From Phyllobacterium phragmitis (GTDB taxonomy: Bacteria; Pseudomonadota; Alphaproteobacteria; Rhizobiales; Rhizobiaceae): a DNA stretch of 64,000 bases. A model generated the notes under the pieces. The model was given only the letters and a program-made list of their open reading frames with translations. It made no database searches and had not been told where the DNA came from. This document shows positions 1-6,049 of this stretch, one piece after another. The position numbers and the translations under genes were made by a program. Where the stretch lies: NCBI RefSeq assembly GCF_002980495.1, contig NZ_PVBR01000011.1:1-64000 (forward strand), written 5' to 3'. Every line of letters begins with the position of its first letter. Position 1 is the first letter of the stretch.

Positions 1-127
1 CTGGAGCCTGCATTGGTCTGCGCGCCCTGGTTCAGTTCGTCCTTGGTCTTTTTCGCACCGATGCCAACGGAGAAGCCGCTGCCGCTCGAACCGAACTGGA
101 TGCCGAACCCGGATTTCTCTTCCTTCT
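1..127 (-). pseudogene. Fragment of filamentous haemagglutinin / CdiA-type repeat protein
   Basis: Read on the minus strand, this stretch translates without a stop into a glycine/serine-rich segment containing KEEKSGFGIQFGS, then GFSVGIGAKKTKDEL and NQGAQTNAGS. This pattern (short beta-type SGSGFSVGIG turn, KK-T-KD, then N-G-S) matches the haemagglutinin repeats of CdiA/FhaB two-partner-secreted exoproteins. The 3' part lies beyond the window edge. On the N-terminal side the resemblance stops where the first CRISPR repeat begins, and no start codon or further repeat protein is seen upstream. It is therefore a truncated remnant, or less likely the internal piece of a gene interrupted here. Only about 42 residues are visible, so the family call is tentative. 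Confidence 0.45.
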
Positions 128-278
128 GTCTCCCTCGCACACGCGGGGATAGACCCAGCCAAGGCCAGTCGAGATAACATCCGCGCCGGTCTCCCCCGCA
201 CACGCGGGGATAGACCCGACGCCCCGGCCCCCTTTCAGGTCGATCACTTGTCTCCCCCGCACACGCGGGGATAGGCCC
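128..278 (+). CRISPR. Short type I-E-like CRISPR array, 3 repeats / 2 spacers
   Basis: Three 29-nt repeats start at 128, 189 and 250, with an exact 61-nt period (29-nt repeat plus 32-nt spacer), the geometry of type I-E arrays. The core is an inverted repeat, CCCCGC-ACAC-GCGGGG, followed by ATAGACCC, resembling the Escherichia-type I-E repeat in the same orientation. Repeat 1 has one change in the left arm (CCCTCGC) and repeat 3 has ATAGGCCC near its end, so repeat 2 is the best copy. Spacers are 157-188 and 218-249. No AT-rich leader lies on the 5' side, which is coding-like sequence, and no cas gene is present in the window. The array looks orphaned or truncated. Confidence 0.85.
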
Positions 279-308: not shown

Positions 309-477
309 GGGGAGAGGATTCGAACTCGTGAAACCCGATGAATATGATCGCCATGCCCATGCCCGAGAACCGAAGCCTGAACGCAAAGCGACCGCTAGTT
401 GGCGGCCTAAGCGCTTGTTATATATGCACGATCAACGACTTATGTTTGAATTGGTTGCGGGGGCGGGATTTGCACCT
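309..477 (-). other. tRNA 3'-end remnants (probable integration scar)
   Basis: Minus-strand 477-452 reads as a T-arm and acceptor end with an encoded CCA, including GCAAATCCCGCCCCCGCAACCA minus its first bases; it closely resembles the 3' end of initiator tRNA-Met, with a mutated T-loop. No anticodon or D arm precedes it. A second TTCGAATC T-loop-like motif lies at about 317-325 on the same strand, followed by a short GC stem and A/T run near 290-302, but its T-stem does not pair. Such partial tRNA ends are commonly left by tRNA-targeting integrases. The gap from 279 to 786 holds no convincing gene. Apart from a small ATTTTC-N4-GAAAAT inverted repeat at 569-584 and AT-rich DNA I see nothing else in it. 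Confidence 0.4.
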
Positions 478-786
478 ACCAGTATCGCCTACTAATCGGT
501 GAACCCTCCTCAGCACATAAATTTAGTCGACGCCCTGTACTGGCGGTAGCCTTCCTCCGCTATCACCTATTTTCATAAGAAAATCAATATATTAACAGGT
601 GGACCGGCATGGCATGCGGTTCATTTTTTGTCGCGTCATGCTGCAACTGACAATTATTGATTTTAAATGATATTTTCTGATGCGCGGCCAGTAGACGCGA
701 CACAGCAACCGCCCAGGCACGAGGCTGAAGAAGGATTGACGACGGCCGACGGTTGAGTGATGTTCCCCACAACAAAGGGGCATCTT

Positions 787-1044
787 ATGAAATTCCTTAT
801 TTCCACCCTGGGCGGACTGCAGATGCTTGGAGGCATCGCAGTCCTGATCACTGCAGCTTCCTCTATTCATGAGATCTTAGGTGCGGTTGCCTTTGGTCTA
901 GGCGTGATTTGCCTCGCGCTCGGCGCTGTAATTGATCGGCTGGAATCGCTGTTGCCAAAGTCCGAGCAAAAATCAAGGAAAGTGCCCCCGGTGGCCACGA
1001 TTGAGATGCCGACAATGAACGAGCGTGGTTGGTCGAGCCAATGA
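787..1044 (+). CDS. Small hypothetical membrane protein (85 aa)
   Basis: The start ATG at 787 is preceded by AAAGGGG ending 6 nt upstream, better placed than an ATG ten codons earlier. The protein has two hydrophobic segments, about residues 2-24 and 31-52, then a short charged tail rich in Lys/Glu/Pro. This implies a two-TM inner-membrane hairpin. I do not recognise a family. Its surroundings are AT-richer than the rest of the window, in keeping with acquired DNA. Function unknown. Confidence 0.5.
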   Translation: MKFLISTLGGLQMLGGIAVLITAASSIHEILGAVAFGLGVICLALGAVIDRLESLLPKSEQKSRKVPPVATIEMPTMNERGWSSQ

Positions 1045-1095: not shown

Positions 1096-1635
1096 ATGAC
1101 TACCGCTGATTAGGCCTTTGTAATAAGCCTTTTCTCTGTCGCAATTTCCCTTGCTGGTTTCATCTGGAATGTGTGGTCGAAATTCATCTACCCAAAACCG
1201 AAGGTACGCACGACGTTCCAGGTAATGACGGTCGTAGGGGACGATGAAGGCACCCAAGTGATTTCGCTAAGTGCTACCAACTATGGACCGGGGGCGGTCA
1301 CTCTTCATTCTTCTGTCGGGCGCCCTAAACACTCAACGCTGCGACGTCTCATGAAGAAATCGCAAACCTGGGCCATCTTGAATCCGCTGCACAATTTTCC
1401 ATCTGAAATGAACCTCACCAAAGGGCCATTTAGCGGCGGACTTCCGAAGAAAATAGAGGTGGGTGAGGAATTTCGCGTCTATTTTCCCCTTAATCATGGG
1501 GGGCTACGGGATAGCAAAATTATTGACGTTGGTTTCCATGATACCTTCGGCCGTTATAATTGGGCACCACGGAAACACGTCGCAGCCGTAATCAATCAAA
1601 TCCGCAAGCATTTTCCGAAAACATCGGAAACATAA
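1096..1635 (+). pseudogene. Hypothetical membrane-anchored protein with in-frame amber codon
   Basis: From GTG 1171 the frame encodes a 154-aa soluble domain (WSKFIYPKPKVRTTF onward) that I cannot assign to a family. The same frame continues upstream: codons 1114-1170 encode a hydrophobic helix (FVISLFSVAISLAGFIW), and an ATG at 1096 would start MTTAD, but codon 1111-1113 is TAG. The natural protein was probably an N-terminally anchored protein of about 179 aa. The amber codon either inactivates it, leaves only a shortened product from GTG 1171, or is a sequence error. No good ribosome-binding site precedes GTG 1171. Confidence 0.45.
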
Positions 1636-1672: not shown

Positions 1673-2242
1673 CTATTCGCCCCACGCCTTGGGAGGCTTC
1701 ACCTCGACCGGCCGGACGTTCGCGCCTCGGATGCGCGCCACCTTCTCGTCAGCGAGGGCGAGCTCCCGCTCTTCTGATTCCTTCGATGCAGCGCCGTCAA
1801 TCAGGCGCTTCTGCAAGCGGACAATGTCGATGTCCCGCCACACCACGTAGGCCATGCGAGCGGCGCATAGGGTGACAACGCCGCCCACGACACCGGCGAC
1901 GGTCCGGCGGGCATCTTCCGGCCACAAGGCGGCATCCTCCGCCCCGATCACCGACAGCGTGACCAGTCCAACCAGCGCAGCCGCGTTGATGCCGATGATC
2001 CAGCCGTACTCGGTCGTCACGCTTACGATAGAGGCGGTCAGGTCCTTGCGCTTATCAGGATCAAGGCTCTTCCACTCGAGCGTGGGCATTCCGCGATTGA
2101 GGCGGACGAACACCGCCGCAACCATGATGGAGAGGGCGACAATGAGCGGCTGGAACGCGCCGAACAGGCGCACGAGCGGGACCGCCCACGCAAACAGACC
2201 GGCGACAATCAGGGTAACAACAATGGTCGGCGCTCTGGCCAT
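1673..2242 (-). CDS. 4-TM membrane protein, RexB-like partner
   Basis: A 189-aa protein with four predicted membrane helices at about residues 6-25, 30-47, 80-100 and 113-133, followed by a charged cytoplasmic tail of about 55 residues rich in Glu/Arg/Lys. Its ATG overlaps the stop of the upstream gene (TGATG at 2240-2244), so the two are translationally coupled. Four TM helices, a polar loop between helices 2 and 3 and a charged end after helix 4 are also the layout of phage lambda RexB, a membrane ion channel that depolarises infected cells. Sequence identity is too low to claim homology by eye. The RexB-like role is an inference from topology and gene order. Confidence 0.5.
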   Translation of the reverse strand: MARAPTIVVTLIVAGLFAWAVPLVRLFGAFQPLIVALSIMVAAVFVRLNRGMPTLEWKSLDPDKRKDLTASIVSVTTEYGWIIGINAAALVGLVTLSVIGAEDAALWPEDARRTVAGVVGGVVTLCAARMAYVVWRDIDIVRLQKRLIDGAASKESEERELALADEKVARIRGANVRPVEVKPPKAWGE

Positions 2243-3279
2243 CAGGCCTTGATCTTTCCATCCTTAACGAAGCGAGAATATACCTCTTGGAGCTGGTCCG
2301 AGACGTTGTCGAACTCCAGAAGATTGCTCCCTTCATGGGGCATGTGGAACGGCATACGGGTCCGCAGAATGGCATCGCCATCCCTTATCTGGCCGTCCTT
2401 GCCCTCAATTTGCACTTGGGCGTCTGATTCGTCCGCAAGATCATTCGCAATGGCTTGGAACTTCTTGCGTGATTCCTCGGTCCGGCGTCCCCGGACCTTC
2501 ACCGACGCTTCAACAGCAAGATACTCCTCGGGACCGAGACTTTCAATGAGCGACGCAGCCTGCTTGTCGCCAAACAGCGCCTTCACGATTGGCACCGCCT
2601 GCTGCATCTGGGCAAATTTGTCCGCAACGCGCCGGGAGGTCTTGACTTCGCGCTTCTCGGCCTCGCCTTCAAAGTTGATGACCTGCGGCACCGATTTTCC
2701 CGCCACCCGGAGGTTGCGTATCTCGCCAATGTCTCCCGCCGTCGCGGTCTTGTCGAACTCGGCATTGAGGGCGAACGACATGGCCGGATCCACCACAGCC
2801 CCGCGCGATTTGAGCAGCCAATCGAGGTACAGCCGCACGAACTCCGGCGTCATGGAGTGTGTCTTCAAAAAGAGGACGTGATTGCCGATTGCGATCCAGT
2901 AGGCCAGTCCCCGGATGAACTGAGACCCCTTTGGTGCCACCCGCTCGTCAAGGTCATAGACTGTCGCCGTGGTCAGGTCCGACAATTTCACCTGCGAGGG
3001 CTTCATGTTCAGGAGCGCCTGCATGTCCTTTTCCTGTGCGAGGCACATCTCACCGAACACGGCATCGGACAGGTCAGCGACCTTGTTCAGGAATATCTTG
3101 CGGCCATCACCGTTGCCCACGTCGAATACTCGGTCCTCCGGCCGAGCCCACAGCTTCGATTTGTCGTTCTGAGTATTGAGGGCCTCGCGGCAGAGGACCT
3201 CGATCGTCTTGCCCTTCGGCGCCTTCGCGTCCGCCTCAAAGCGGCGATAATGCACCATGTGGTACGCTGTGCTCATCAT
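2242..3279 (-). CDS. Soluble 345-aa protein, RexA-like first gene of a two-gene unit
   Basis: A soluble, charged protein without signal peptide or TM segment. An N-terminal part (residues ~1-160) has short beta-rich stretches ending in GLAYWIAIGNHVLFLKTHSM and PEFVRLYLDWLL. A middle part has AVPIVKALFGDKQAASLIESLG followed by VEASVKVRGRR. The C-terminal part has AQVQIEGKDGQ and SDQLQEVYSRFV. Lambda RexA shows the same order: beta segment, DFLIG-type helix, FGDILKVLGA-like motif, IKPKFKRD strand, then a final strand and helix. The start is either of two adjacent ATGs (3279 or 3276), with a GGGGGG Shine-Dalgarno tract at 3281-3286; 3276 has the better spacing. It heads an operon with the overlapping 4-TM gene. 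I would test it as a RexA-type phage sensor; no enzymatic motif is visible. Confidence 0.5.
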   Translation of the reverse strand: MMSTAYHMVHYRRFEADAKAPKGKTIEVLCREALNTQNDKSKLWARPEDRVFDVGNGDGRKIFLNKVADLSDAVFGEMCLAQEKDMQALLNMKPSQVKLSDLTTATVYDLDERVAPKGSQFIRGLAYWIAIGNHVLFLKTHSMTPEFVRLYLDWLLKSRGAVVDPAMSFALNAEFDKTATAGDIGEIRNLRVAGKSVPQVINFEGEAEKREVKTSRRVADKFAQMQQAVPIVKALFGDKQAASLIESLGPEEYLAVEASVKVRGRRTEESRKKFQAIANDLADESDAQVQIEGKDGQIRDGDAILRTRMPFHMPHEGSNLLEFDNVSDQLQEVYSRFVKDGKIKA

Positions 3280-3334
3280 TCCCCCCGTCCAATGTCATTC
3301 AGACCTTTGGCTTTATCGCCCGGTGAGGGGAAAA

Positions 3335-3376
3335 TGCCAAGTGAACTTGCGCGTTCGTGCCAACTGAAATTGCGCG
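3335..3376. repeat. Tandem 19-nt repeat at island boundary (possible IS end)
   Basis: TGCCAAGTGAACTTGCGCG at 3335-3353 is followed after 4 nt by TGCCAACTGAAATTGCGCG at 3358-3376, 17 of 19 positions identical, period 23. Tandem internal repeats near an end are typical of some insertion sequences, notably the IS21 family. The array lies immediately downstream of the stop of the damaged peptide-binding-protein gene, so it may be the scar of an element. No transposase gene is present here. Confidence 0.45.
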
Positions 3377-4957
3377 CTACACGATCTTAGCGCCTTCAAC
3401 GTTGATGCGCTTGTCGATCTCGATCATGATCTGAACGCGCAGCGTTGCCCTCACCGGCCACGGCCTGAGCGCTACAGCGGCTTCCCAGCTATTGGCGAGG
3501 AAGAACAGTGGGATAACACCCAGATCGTGCATGGCGATTTCAGTTGCTTTCTGCAACAGCTTCTCGCGTTTCGCATCATCCAGCGTCTTGCGCGCCTCTT
3601 CGAGAGTCTTGTCGAATTCCGGATTGGTATAGCGGCCGCGATTTCCCTGACCGGCATTGTCGCCATAGGTTTCGAAGATAGGGCCAAGCACGCCTGAAGC
3701 CTCGCCGGTTTCAACCGCCGCGCCCCCCATGATGAGGCTGAATTCAAGAGCCGATGCACGGGTGAAGTAGACGCTTCCCGGCAAGGTCGTCACATCGGTC
3801 TTGATGCCGATCCGGCTGAAGAACTGGCCGATAGCCTGTGCAACCCTCGAGTCATTCGGATAGCGGTCGTTGGAGGCATGGACGGTCAACGCAAATCCGT
3901 CGGGATAGCCTGCCTCTGCCAAAAGTTGCTTGGCCTTTGCGGGATCATAAGGGTCGACCTTGAGTGCCGGATCATAGCCGAAATAGCCTTCGGGTACGAC
4001 TTGCCCTGCGGGCGTCCCCTGCCCGTCCATCACGCGATCGACAATTGCCTCACGATTGATCGAAAGTGAAAGAGCGCGGCGCACCTCCGGCTTCAAAAGC
4101 GGGTTCTTGCCATCCGCTCCTTTGGCAAAGGGAGACACCTCACGGTCCTGATCCATATGCAGATACATCAGGCGATTGCCGGTGACCTCGATCACATTGA
4201 TCGCATCGGAGGATTCCAGCCGGCGCGTATCGGCCGTGGGAATGTTTTCGATGAGGTCTACATCACCGGAAAGGATCGCCGCAACGCGCGCGCTGCTGTT
4301 CTTGAAAATGCGGAAAGTGACCTTTTCCCAGGGCGCCTTTCCGCCCCAATAGTCGTCATTGCGGGCGAGCACGATATTGTCGTCCGGCGTCCAGGAGACG
4401 AACTTGAACGGGCCGGTACCGATCACGCCATTGCCCTTGTTCATTTCCGCCGTCGTCGTCTTCCCCTGCGATGCCGGCAGAATGGCAATCCGGGTCAGAT
4501 TGTTGAGCAGAAGCGGTGTTGGACCATCGGTCTTGACCTGCACCGTCAGCGGATCGACAGCGACGACATCCTTGATCGCCTTTACATAGGGCGTAAAGGA
4601 ACTCGGGCTGTTGGTCGCCGCAAACGGCACGCGCTTGATGCTGGCGACGACATCCTGTGCGGTGAAATCGCTGCCATCATGGAACTTGACGTTCGGCCGC
4701 AGCTTGAACTCCCAGGTCGTATCATCGATCCGGCGCCAGGATTGCGCCAGCGCAGGCTGAATCTGCTGCTTGGCATCCTGGTTCACCAATCCGTCGAAAA
4801 TATTGCGCGCCATGGCGCTGTTGGGACCCACCACATAGAATTGCGGGTCCATCGACGTCGTTGATGCCGACAATCCGACGGTCAGATCCCTGGCAAACGA
4901 CGATGCAGGGAAAAGAGCGACAGACGCAGCCAAAACCGCGTAAGCGAAACGCTTCAT
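3377..4957 (-). CDS. Peptide ABC transporter substrate-binding protein, C-terminus replaced
   Basis: A periplasmic binding protein of the DppA/OppA family (SBP_bac_5), 526 aa. It begins with a signal peptide (MKRFAYAVLAASVALFPASSFA), then shows TTSMDPQ, the WEFKLRPNVKFHDGS signature near residue 85 and the YDPAKAKQLLAEAGYPDGF motif near 345. The family normally ends with a YTPR...YTLA-type strand, as the second binding protein at 12457-14031 does. Here the sequence departs after NSWEAA into an unrelated tail ending KRINVEGAKIV. The junction near 3480 coincides with the island boundary. It is probably a 3'-truncated gene fused to foreign DNA. It is divergent from the LysR gene at 5092, and no permease genes adjoin it. 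Confidence 0.8.
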   Translation of the reverse strand: MKRFAYAVLAASVALFPASSFARDLTVGLSASTTSMDPQFYVVGPNSAMARNIFDGLVNQDAKQQIQPALAQSWRRIDDTTWEFKLRPNVKFHDGSDFTAQDVVASIKRVPFAATNSPSSFTPYVKAIKDVVAVDPLTVQVKTDGPTPLLLNNLTRIAILPASQGKTTTAEMNKGNGVIGTGPFKFVSWTPDDNIVLARNDDYWGGKAPWEKVTFRIFKNSSARVAAILSGDVDLIENIPTADTRRLESSDAINVIEVTGNRLMYLHMDQDREVSPFAKGADGKNPLLKPEVRRALSLSINREAIVDRVMDGQGTPAGQVVPEGYFGYDPALKVDPYDPAKAKQLLAEAGYPDGFALTVHASNDRYPNDSRVAQAIGQFFSRIGIKTDVTTLPGSVYFTRASALEFSLIMGGAAVETGEASGVLGPIFETYGDNAGQGNRGRYTNPEFDKTLEEARKTLDDAKREKLLQKATEIAMHDLGVIPLFFLANSWEAAVALRPWPVRATLRVQIMIEIDKRINVEGAKIV

Positions 4958-5023
4958 AATGGGAACTCCTCCGAATGCTCCGATTTCCGCGCCTCTCCGC
5001 GGATCAGCTCACAGAACTAGCCC

Positions 5024-5041
5024 TTTCATGCATGCATGAAA
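5024..5041. promoter_or_regulatory. 18-nt perfect palindrome, candidate LysR operator
   Basis: TTTCATGCATGCATGAAA is perfectly self-complementary and lies in the 134-nt divergent gap between the peptide-binding-protein gene (start 4957) and the LysR gene (start 5092). Position and symmetry suit a regulator binding site controlling both promoters. Which protein binds is inferred from adjacency only. Confidence 0.4.
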
Positions 5042-5091
5042 AATTGTATTTGGTACTATATTCATGTCTTGATGTTATGGGTTGATGGACG

Positions 5092-5997
5092 ATGCGTCTG
5101 AAATCGCGACAGGTTGAAGCTTTTCGAAGTGTCATCATGACAGGTGGAATTACAGCTGCGGCCGAAGCGATGAATATCACGCAGCCAGCCGTCAGCCGCT
5201 TGATCAGAGATCTTGAGGAAGCCGTTCAAATCAGCTTGTTCGAGCGTCAGGGCACCCGCCTTGTGCCAACCCTGGAAGCGACATTGCTGTTCCATGAGGT
5301 CGAGCGCCTTTATATCGGCCTGGATCAGATCGCGCGCGCGGCAACCGACATAAGGCAACACAAGAACATCGTCTTACGCATAGCCAGCGTGACGTCCCTG
5401 GTGCGACCTTATCTTCAGCAGGCAATCATCGAAGTCGTCGGCAACAGGATCGACCTGCCACTTGTCATCGATGTCGAAAACAGCCGCCATATCTGGGATA
5501 TGGTCGAGAATAATCACTATGATCTCGGCTTCGTGTTTGGCTCTCCACGCAGGGGCGACCACAATGCCGTTTTGCTGCATAGCTCACATGCGGTGGCAGC
5601 CATGCAGCCCGATCACCCTCTTGCCTCACGCGAGGTCATTACACCGGCCGATCTCTATGATTATCGCGTCCTGACAGCCGGACGGAATTCTCCGCTAAGG
5701 CTGGCGCTGGATCGTGCATTTGCAAGTGCCGAGCATGCCCCTATCAGCACGATGGAAACTTCGATGCTCAATTGCTGCCATTTCGCCGCCGCTGGCATGG
5801 GGATAGCGATTGTCGATCAGACGACAATCCGCGCCGCTGGAACAAACATAACGAGCGTTCCGTTCCTCCCTGCTATCGATGTGTCCTATTTCGCCATTCG
5901 CCCTTCGGGCAGCCGGCGAATTGCAGTGCTGGATGAAATCGTAGCGAGAATGGGTGACTTGATGTCCATGAACGTCGGCCACACCTGCAGGGATTGA
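5092..5997 (+). CDS. LysR-family transcriptional regulator
   Basis: A 301-aa LysR-type regulator. The N-terminal winged HTH (residues ~1-60: LKSRQVEAFRSVIMTGGITAAAEAMNITQPAVSRLIRDLE, in two halves) is canonical, and the rest is a periplasmic-binding-like effector domain. It is divergent from the peptide-binding-protein gene and convergent with the ATPase gene ending at 6050. By position it probably controlled peptide or amino-acid uptake through the palindrome at 5024-5041. The ligand cannot be told from sequence. Confidence 0.9.
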   Translation: MRLKSRQVEAFRSVIMTGGITAAAEAMNITQPAVSRLIRDLEEAVQISLFERQGTRLVPTLEATLLFHEVERLYIGLDQIARAATDIRQHKNIVLRIASVTSLVRPYLQQAIIEVVGNRIDLPLVIDVENSRHIWDMVENNHYDLGFVFGSPRRGDHNAVLLHSSHAVAAMQPDHPLASREVITPADLYDYRVLTAGRNSPLRLALDRAFASAEHAPISTMETSMLNCCHFAAAGMGIAIVDQTTIRAAGTNITSVPFLPAIDVSYFAIRPSGSRRIAVLDEIVARMGDLMSMNVGHTCRD

Positions 5998-6049
5998 GTT
6001 GCCGCGGCGGAACTCTTGTTTGAAAGCGTGTCGTTCGTAAGCGTCAGGA

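What the first reader, a model, noticed from the sequence alone, without database searches (positions are those of the whole stretch)
1673..3279. Two-gene unit with the layout of phage lambda RexA/RexB, beside a CRISPR remnant
Seen directly: a soluble 344-345-aa gene followed by a 1-nt overlapping gene for a 4-TM, 189-aa protein, in a gene-poor island next to a CRISPR array and tRNA-end remnants. Known: lambda RexA (soluble sensor) and RexB (4-TM channel) form a phage-exclusion system in the order rexA-rexB. Inference: the soluble protein has the same order of segments as RexA, including an FGDK...LIESLG motif followed by a basic VKVRGRR strand where RexA has FGDILKVLGA and a KPKFKRD strand, plus a final beta strand and helix. 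This would be a divergent chromosomal Rex-type abortive-infection system.
Basis: partly seen in the sequence, partly recalled or inferred. Interest (0 to 1): 0.75.

Follow-up and report, generated by a model that had tools for sequence, protein, structure and literature searches.

The report
Divergent RexAB-type phage-exclusion gene pair
A two-gene unit in a Rhizobiaceae-type bacterium encodes a protein with the predicted fold of phage lambda RexA plus a four-helix membrane partner, and relatives in some phages sit just after the lysogeny repressor as rexA-rexB do in lambda, so it is probably an unrecognised branch of a classic phage-exclusion system.

Summary
In detail: 2242-3279(-) encodes a 345-aa soluble protein, 1673-2242(-) a 189-aa 4-TM protein, overlapping by 1 nt. 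The soluble protein matches phrog_3482 (phage family, function unknown) over its full length, E 5e-59; no Pfam or NCBIfam model passes its cut-off. The Rex reading is supported by structure: against 350,542 PDB chains an AlphaFold2 model (pLDDT 78, pTM 0.74) finds only the two lambda RexA chains at E<=0.001 (5e-7, 1e-6; next E 0.04). In 38 of 39 non-redundant relatives the next gene is a 3-4 TM protein; in Escherichia phage Perceval and two Acinetobacter phages the pair lies downstream of CI, as in lambda. Against: profile comparison with lambda RexA and RexB finds no sequence similarity; the superposition is loose; the 'FGDK' motif is not conserved; the window copy has no CI upstream but an oligopeptide-transporter gene. 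A P. putida prophage RexAB-type system published in January 2026 shows that such pairs protect against phages; I could not obtain its sequence to test kinship. Verdict: probably a sequence-divergent variant of RexAB; mechanism inferred, not shown.

The parts
2242..3279 (-). RexA-like soluble protein, 345 aa (phrog_3482). In the 344-aa model numbering: split globular domain about 2-171 and 305-338, with an inserted strand-helix-helix-strand-helix-strand-strand domain about 186-303, as in lambda RexA
   Evidence: ORF; PHROG full-length E 5.3e-59; model; Foldseek best match 8TWQ E 5.2e-07; RexA domain limits from PMC11077077 section 18; the mapping of model elements to them is my inference
1673..2242 (-). 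RexB-like membrane protein, 189 aa, four transmembrane helices, long charged C-terminal helix; its start codon overlaps the stop of the upstream gene by 1 nt
   Evidence: ORF; hydropathy; model (helices 3-18, 22-48, 62-106, 109-173; pLDDT 84.7, pTM 0.64); 51% identical to the Azospirillum partner
128..278 (.). Three-repeat CRISPR remnant (29-nt repeats, two spacers); neighbour, not shown to belong to the system
   Evidence: the repeat core occurs only here in the assembly
452..473 (-). tRNA-Met-like 3' end fragment (possible attachment-site remnant)
   Evidence: 20 of 22 bases as in three tRNA-Met genes of the genome; no intact tRNA

Best explanation
The pair is a divergent RexAB-type phage-exclusion (abortive-infection) module. 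The 345-aa protein is a RexA-fold DNA-binding sensor, probably a dimer that clamps DNA and senses a phage replication or recombination intermediate; once triggered (or in excess) it activates the co-translated 4-TM partner, which assembles in the inner membrane, permeabilises it and stops growth before phage progeny are made. Shown here: gene layout, RexA fold of the sensor (by prediction), conserved pairing with a 4-TM protein, CI-adjacent position of some relatives in phages. Inferred from lambda and P. putida work: DNA binding, dimerisation, pore formation, growth arrest, phage exclusion. The window copy was probably brought in by a prophage or island, but it now follows a transporter gene and no CI.
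Against: No profile-level sequence similarity of A to lambda RexA (hhalign probability at most 0.4) or of B to RexB (probability 1.4). The superposition with 8TWQ is loose (rmsd 16.8, TM 0.37/0.43), as expected if the two domains are differently oriented, but I could not test that. B's model has no match with E<=0.001 in BFVD. Upstream of the window copy is a transporter gene, not CI, and in Shigella phage SfIV A lies beside lysis genes. Only 9 of 34 upstream ORFs scanned in relatives carry HTH_3. One of 39 relatives (L175, Marinobacter) has no partner. In P. putida trans-expressed RexA did not restore phage defence and no RexA-RexB contact was seen in two-hybrid tests, so even the model system's mechanism is not settled. 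PADLOC has no model for the protein (best PDC-S16 at E 0.013, 41 residues).
Confidence: 0.72

Rival explanations
1. A lysogeny-switch regulator rather than a defence system: A, a RexA/RdgC-fold non-specific DNA binder, tunes the CI/Cro decision of its prophage, and B restrains A; phage exclusion is a side effect or absent.
For: CI-adjacent position in three phages; lambda RexA biases the bistable switch and its exclusion activity does not follow DNA binding (PMC11077077; abstract and sections 18, 19, 24 read).
Against: Members occur away from CI (SfIV; the window copy; most upstream ORFs scanned are not HTH_3); in P. putida rexAB did not affect the CI-like promoter (PMC12894663).
Confidence: 0.12
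2. A membrane toxin-antitoxin pair: B is a toxic membrane protein and A its cytosolic antitoxin; phage shut-off of A frees B.
For: Tight overlap and constant pairing of a soluble and a 4-TM protein are also usual in such pairs (recalled).
Against: A carries the RexA fold; in the closest tested RexAB-type pair, more A triggers B instead of neutralising it (PMC12894663).
Confidence: 0.07
3. A dead prophage or island remnant: the pair is intact by chance but not expressed and has no function in this genome.
For: Near a 3-repeat CRISPR remnant and a tRNA-end fragment; not found in 5 other genomes of the genus or 35 other genomes of the family and order (1 of 41, the window's own).
Against: Both frames are open at full length; a homologous pair with the same 1-nt overlap persists at 55% identity in Azospirillum, which suggests selection on the unit.
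Confidence: 0.08
4. B is a small transporter of the PnuC kind and A an unrelated neighbour.
For: Weak matches of B to PnuC models (phrog_1880 E 0.0099; TIGR01528 14.2 bits).
Against: TIGR01528 cut-off is 42.45 bits; the match covers part of the protein; the conserved pairing with A.
Confidence: 0.01

Closest known systems
Phage lambda RexA/RexB (8TWQ for RexA)
   Same: Predicted fold of the soluble protein, order soluble then 4-TM on one strand, position after CI in three phage relatives, four TM helices
   Different: No detectable sequence similarity; A is 345 aa against 279, B 189 against 144; PHROG families differ (3482 against 12654 and 14878); the genes overlap by 1 nt instead of being 15 nt apart; the window copy is not beside CI
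Pseudomonas putida prophage P1 RexABpp (PP_5643/PP_5644)
   Same: Recognised by structure and HHpred and not by BLAST; four-helix membrane partner; downstream of a CI-like gene, with two genes between (PMC12894663)
   Different: Sequence not at hand, so kinship untested; a seven-residue fingerprint of RexBpp taken from the paper never reached 5 of 7 in the proteins here (highest value printed 3)
RexA-like proteins of actinophages (Sbash gp30, CarolAnn gp44, Toast gp42)
   Same: Dimeric DNA-binding RexA homologues near CI (PMC11077077 discussion); RexAB-type pairs in Sbash and CarolAnn (PMC12894663 introduction)
   Different: Not compared by sequence here; a 165-aa Sbash protein appears only as a non-significant match to B (E 1.6)
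RdgC
   Same: Shares fold elements with RexA (PMC11077077); weak BFVD match of A to a phage 'Recombination-associated protein'
   Different: No RdgC family in the Pfam scan; no membrane partner is known for RdgC (recalled)

Membership tests
RexAB-type phage exclusion system (broad sense) | Soluble component with the RexA fold | tested here: met
   Foldseek PDB: 8TWQ_B E 5.2e-07, 8TWQ_A 1.1e-06, sole matches with E<=0.001; rests on a predicted model
RexAB-type phage exclusion system (broad sense) | Adjacent downstream 4-TM membrane protein | tested here: met
   conserved in 38 of 39 relatives
RexAB-type phage exclusion system (broad sense) | Encoded in a prophage immunity region beside CI (usual, not required) | tested here: not met
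   Window copy: the gene upstream is SBP_bac_5 of a transporter operon. In the family: yes for Perceval, phi1_092021, Ab1656-2 and L193, no for SfIV
RexAB-type phage exclusion system (broad sense) | A dimerises and binds DNA non-specifically | not testable with these tools
   -
RexAB-type phage exclusion system (broad sense) | Excludes phages; B perturbs the membrane | not testable with these tools
   -
lambda RexA sequence family (phrog_12654) | Sequence match to RexA | tested here: not met
   PHROG scan gives phrog_3482 and three non-significant families, not phrog_12654; hhalign with 10 RexA sequences probability 0.1
lambda RexB sequence family (phrog_14878) | Sequence match to RexB | tested here: not met
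   phrog_14878 not among the matches of B; hhalign probability 1.4
RdgC | Match to the RdgC sequence family | tested here: not met
   No RdgC family in the Pfam scan, limit E 10
PnuC transporters | Score over the curated cut-off | tested here: not met
   TIGR01528 14.2 bits against 42.45

The most novel reading that the evidence does not exclude
phrog_3482 (and its neighbour phrog_26543) form one large, so far unnamed branch of RexA/RdgC-fold infection sensors in proteobacterial prophages and islands, in which one sensor family is coupled to several unlike 4-TM effector families (phrog_4510, phrog_16807, and unassigned ones in the window and Azospirillum), so RexAB is a widespread modular defence class rather than a lambda speciality, with copies that have left the prophage immunity region.
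Probability: 0.5. Interest if true: 0.6.

Novelty: new variant of a known kind. Interest (0 to 1): 0.5.

Why it matters
RexAB was one of the first exclusion systems described, yet what triggers RexA is still unknown (PMC12894663 discussion). A sequence-divergent family with the same predicted fold, the same partner layout and many phage and bacterial members gives natural variants for finding the trigger and the A-B contact, and it gives a likely function to a PHROG family marked 'unknown' that occurs in prophages of Acinetobacter, enterobacteria, Pseudomonas and others.

Tried and rejected
Sequence routes to RexA: hhalign of three family alignments (A1, A2, A9) against RexA alignments of 4 and 10 sequences found nothing; phmmer of A against PDB sequences found nothing (best E 0.84). 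B against RexB by hhalign: probability 1.4; B against BFVD by fold: nothing significant; B against phages by tblastn: no match. The window protein alone found no relative in viral contigs.

Motif claim (FGDK...LIESLG as in RexA FGDILKVLGA): rejected as a conserved motif; a helix and a following basic strand do occur in that order in the model.

Other families: DUF2188 19.2 bits under its cut-off of 22, PDC-S16 E 0.013 over 41 residues, PnuC for B: rejected as partial and weak.

Checking strands showed this to be wrong: the upstream side is the assembled one, and its next gene is a transporter gene. Confidence was lowered from 0.75 to 0.72 for that.

Getting the P. putida RexABpp sequence: genome-contig scan (12 loci, two named Pseudomonas), 398 genomes of a Pseudomonas-like genus with A9 (8 hits) and with phrog_26543 (2 hits), 25 of another such genus with A9 (none). 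That these genera are Pseudomonas-like is inferred from strong OprF matches, and, for the first, from two proteins identical to those of the named Pseudomonas loci L169 and L170. A fingerprint of seven RexBpp residues from the paper never reached 5 of 7. Kinship with RexABpp stays untested.

Rows dropped: in the 39-locus count I left out relatives from the contig scans whose A ORF was shorter than 300 aa or not on the + strand, and kept one per 88%-identity group. One search also looked at five loci for which or 58 listed no partner: L056 and L115 end 128 and 456 bases after the gene, L090 has a shortened A frame with a 4-TM ORF further on, L113 has a 4-TM ORF overlapping by 80 bases, L175 has none. 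A9 holds 38 of the 39 relatives plus the window (L111 left out); A10 holds 36 of their 38 partners plus the window's (L105 and L111 left out). In the CI scan I passed 34 of the 40 upstream ORFs listed, one or two per locus; that call reports counts per family, not per locus. The scans kept the best 80 of 144 relatives each. The binomial P printed ignores shared ancestry and is not used. Zymomonas plasmid pZZ6.01 matched but gave no full-length A ORF and was not counted; A is also cut short in L016.

No search for cas genes was made. The mapping of elements to RexA is by eye from the DSSP string and the RexA paper.

Full report
Observation. One search gives the two ORFs as described: 345 aa at 2242-3279(-) and 189 aa at 1673-2242(-), sharing one base (TGATG). 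The smaller has four hydropathy peaks and its model four long helices (pLDDT 84.7). The three CRISPR repeats are there and their core occurs nowhere else in the assembly. tRNA remnants are only partly supported. The window starts at the first base of contig C11; the first 128 bases encode a piece that matches Rhizobium 'hemagglutinin repeat-containing' genes. That contig end lies on the downstream side of the pair. On the upstream side, 97 bases away and on the same strand, is an SBP_bac_5 solute-binding protein gene (3377-4957), followed by a LysR-type regulator, two ABC ATPases, two permeases and a gamma-glutamyltranspeptidase. The transporter part (from about 6067) matches Shinella, Rhizobium and Sinorhizobium replicons at 77-78%, so the host is of the Rhizobiaceae kind; whether the contig is chromosomal is open.

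What the soluble protein is. No Pfam or NCBIfam model passes its cut-off and PADLOC gives only PDC-S16 at E 0.013. PHROGs puts it full length in phrog_3482, E 5.3e-59, function unknown; lambda RexA is phrog_12654 and RexB phrog_14878. tblastn finds a 55.5% identical, full-length relative on the Azospirillum lipoferum 4B plasmid AZO_p1, with a 189-aa partner at the same 1-nt overlap that is 51% identical to the window's; a protein of the same sequence is held in IMG/VR on a viral contig (L181), and an integrase gene lies about 5 kb from the pair on the plasmid (L006:1915-2835).

Relatives in phages. Escherichia phage Perceval: CI, A (340 aa), 'transmembrane protein' (168 aa), then kil, gam, bet and exonuclease genes: the lambda order with this family in the place of rexA-rexB. 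Acinetobacter phages phi1_092021 and Ab1656-2: CI/LexA, a small ORF, A, then a 4-TM protein. Their A proteins are phrog_3482; in phi1_092021 it is annotated 'DefenseFinder protein'. Shigella phage SfIV is an exception: A lies beside lysis genes; the next ORF has 108 codons, matches only the first part of partner family phrog_16807, and is followed by an IS1 gene. A Pseudomonas-like relative close to the window's branch (L193) has an HTH/S24 repressor upstream of A and a 195-aa 4-TM protein downstream.

Pairing. Scans of viral contigs and genome contigs and genome searches gave relatives. Among 39 non-redundant loci from the contig scans, 38 have a 3-4 TM ORF of 159-294 aa at -41 to +67 nt from A. 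Of 309 other ORFs >=120 aa in these loci 10 have >=3 TM. All 10 hits L008-L017 and all 8 hits have the partner too; 3 and 2 of these are the same proteins as members of the 39. The partners fall into unlike PHROG families (phrog_4510, phrog_16807, none), while the sensors examined are in phrog_3482 with phrog_26543 as a weakly linked neighbour. The family is sparse: 4 of 385 genomes of the class and 10 of 398 of the phylum, both counts including the window's genome and sharing two more, 8 of 398 and 0 of 25 of two Pseudomonas-like genera, and 1 of 41 near relatives, the window's own genome. CI-type upstream genes are common but not general: 9 of 34 upstream ORFs carry HTH_3, 6 Peptidase_S24.

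Fold. An AlphaFold2 model from 39 sequences has pLDDT 78.0 and pTM 0.74. Foldseek against 350,542 PDB chains returns lambda RexA chains B and A at E 5.2e-07 and 1.1e-06, probability 1.00; the third match has E 0.041 and probability 0.05. The rmsd is large (16.8) and TM 0.37/0.43; RexA crystallised in a closed form and is proposed to open (PMC11077077), which could give such numbers, but I could not align the domains separately (the VIA-align library was not available). The order of elements agrees with the published RexA architecture (split globular domain with a beta sheet; inserted dimerisation domain of four strands and four helices): in the model, residues 2-171 with strand 305-312 and helix 322-338 would be the globular part, and 186-303 the inserted part with a low-confidence linker at 194-215. 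This mapping is mine.

Literature on novelty. Searches (PMC open-licence library only) listed the lambda RexA structure, the P. putida system and actinophage systems (Sbash, CarolAnn, Butters; listing and beginnings of abstracts only); among the titles listed I saw no paper that assigns proteins of this family from Acinetobacter, Escherichia, Shigella or alphaproteobacteria to Rex. Listings are short (one search showed 30 of 51) and other papers were not searched. Hence 'new variant of a known kind': it resembles RexAB by predicted fold and layout, but it is not a member of the lambda RexA or RexB sequence families.

Noticed in passing
window 1-128 (-): The contig begins inside a frame whose DNA resembles hemagglutinin-repeat genes of Rhizobium plasmids (79-82% over 86-88 bases), so a large exoprotein gene may lie next to the island on an unassembled stretch.
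   Followed up: partly
window 128-278: Three CRISPR repeats with a palindromic GC-rich core; similar stretches on Bosea, Pontibrevibacter, Paracoccus and Bifidobacterium plasmids; no other place with this repeat core in the genome. Presence of cas genes was not checked.
   Followed up: partly
window 757-1044 (+): 95-aa protein matching phrog_27345 (E 9.9e-14, unknown function).
   Followed up: no
window 1171-1635 (+): 154-aa ORF without any family match.
   Followed up: no
window 3280-4957 (-): The pair starts 97 bases after a solute-binding protein gene on the same strand, so it might be read through from that gene's promoter; no promoter-like site was found just upstream of the pair.
   Followed up: no
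L010, L017, L202, L203: A second phage family, phrog_26543, matches phrog_3482 weakly (L010, L017) and is likewise followed by a 3-4 TM protein; probably a sister RexA-like branch.
   Followed up: partly
L194 (Shigella phage SfIV) 2405-3827: A family member beside lysis genes whose downstream ORF matches only the first part of the partner family and is followed by an IS1 gene.
   Followed up: partly
L175 (Marinobacter bryozoorum) 4989-6041: Family member with a HTH-like 344-aa ORF 22 nt upstream but no 4-TM ORF downstream: a possible orphan RexA.
   Followed up: no
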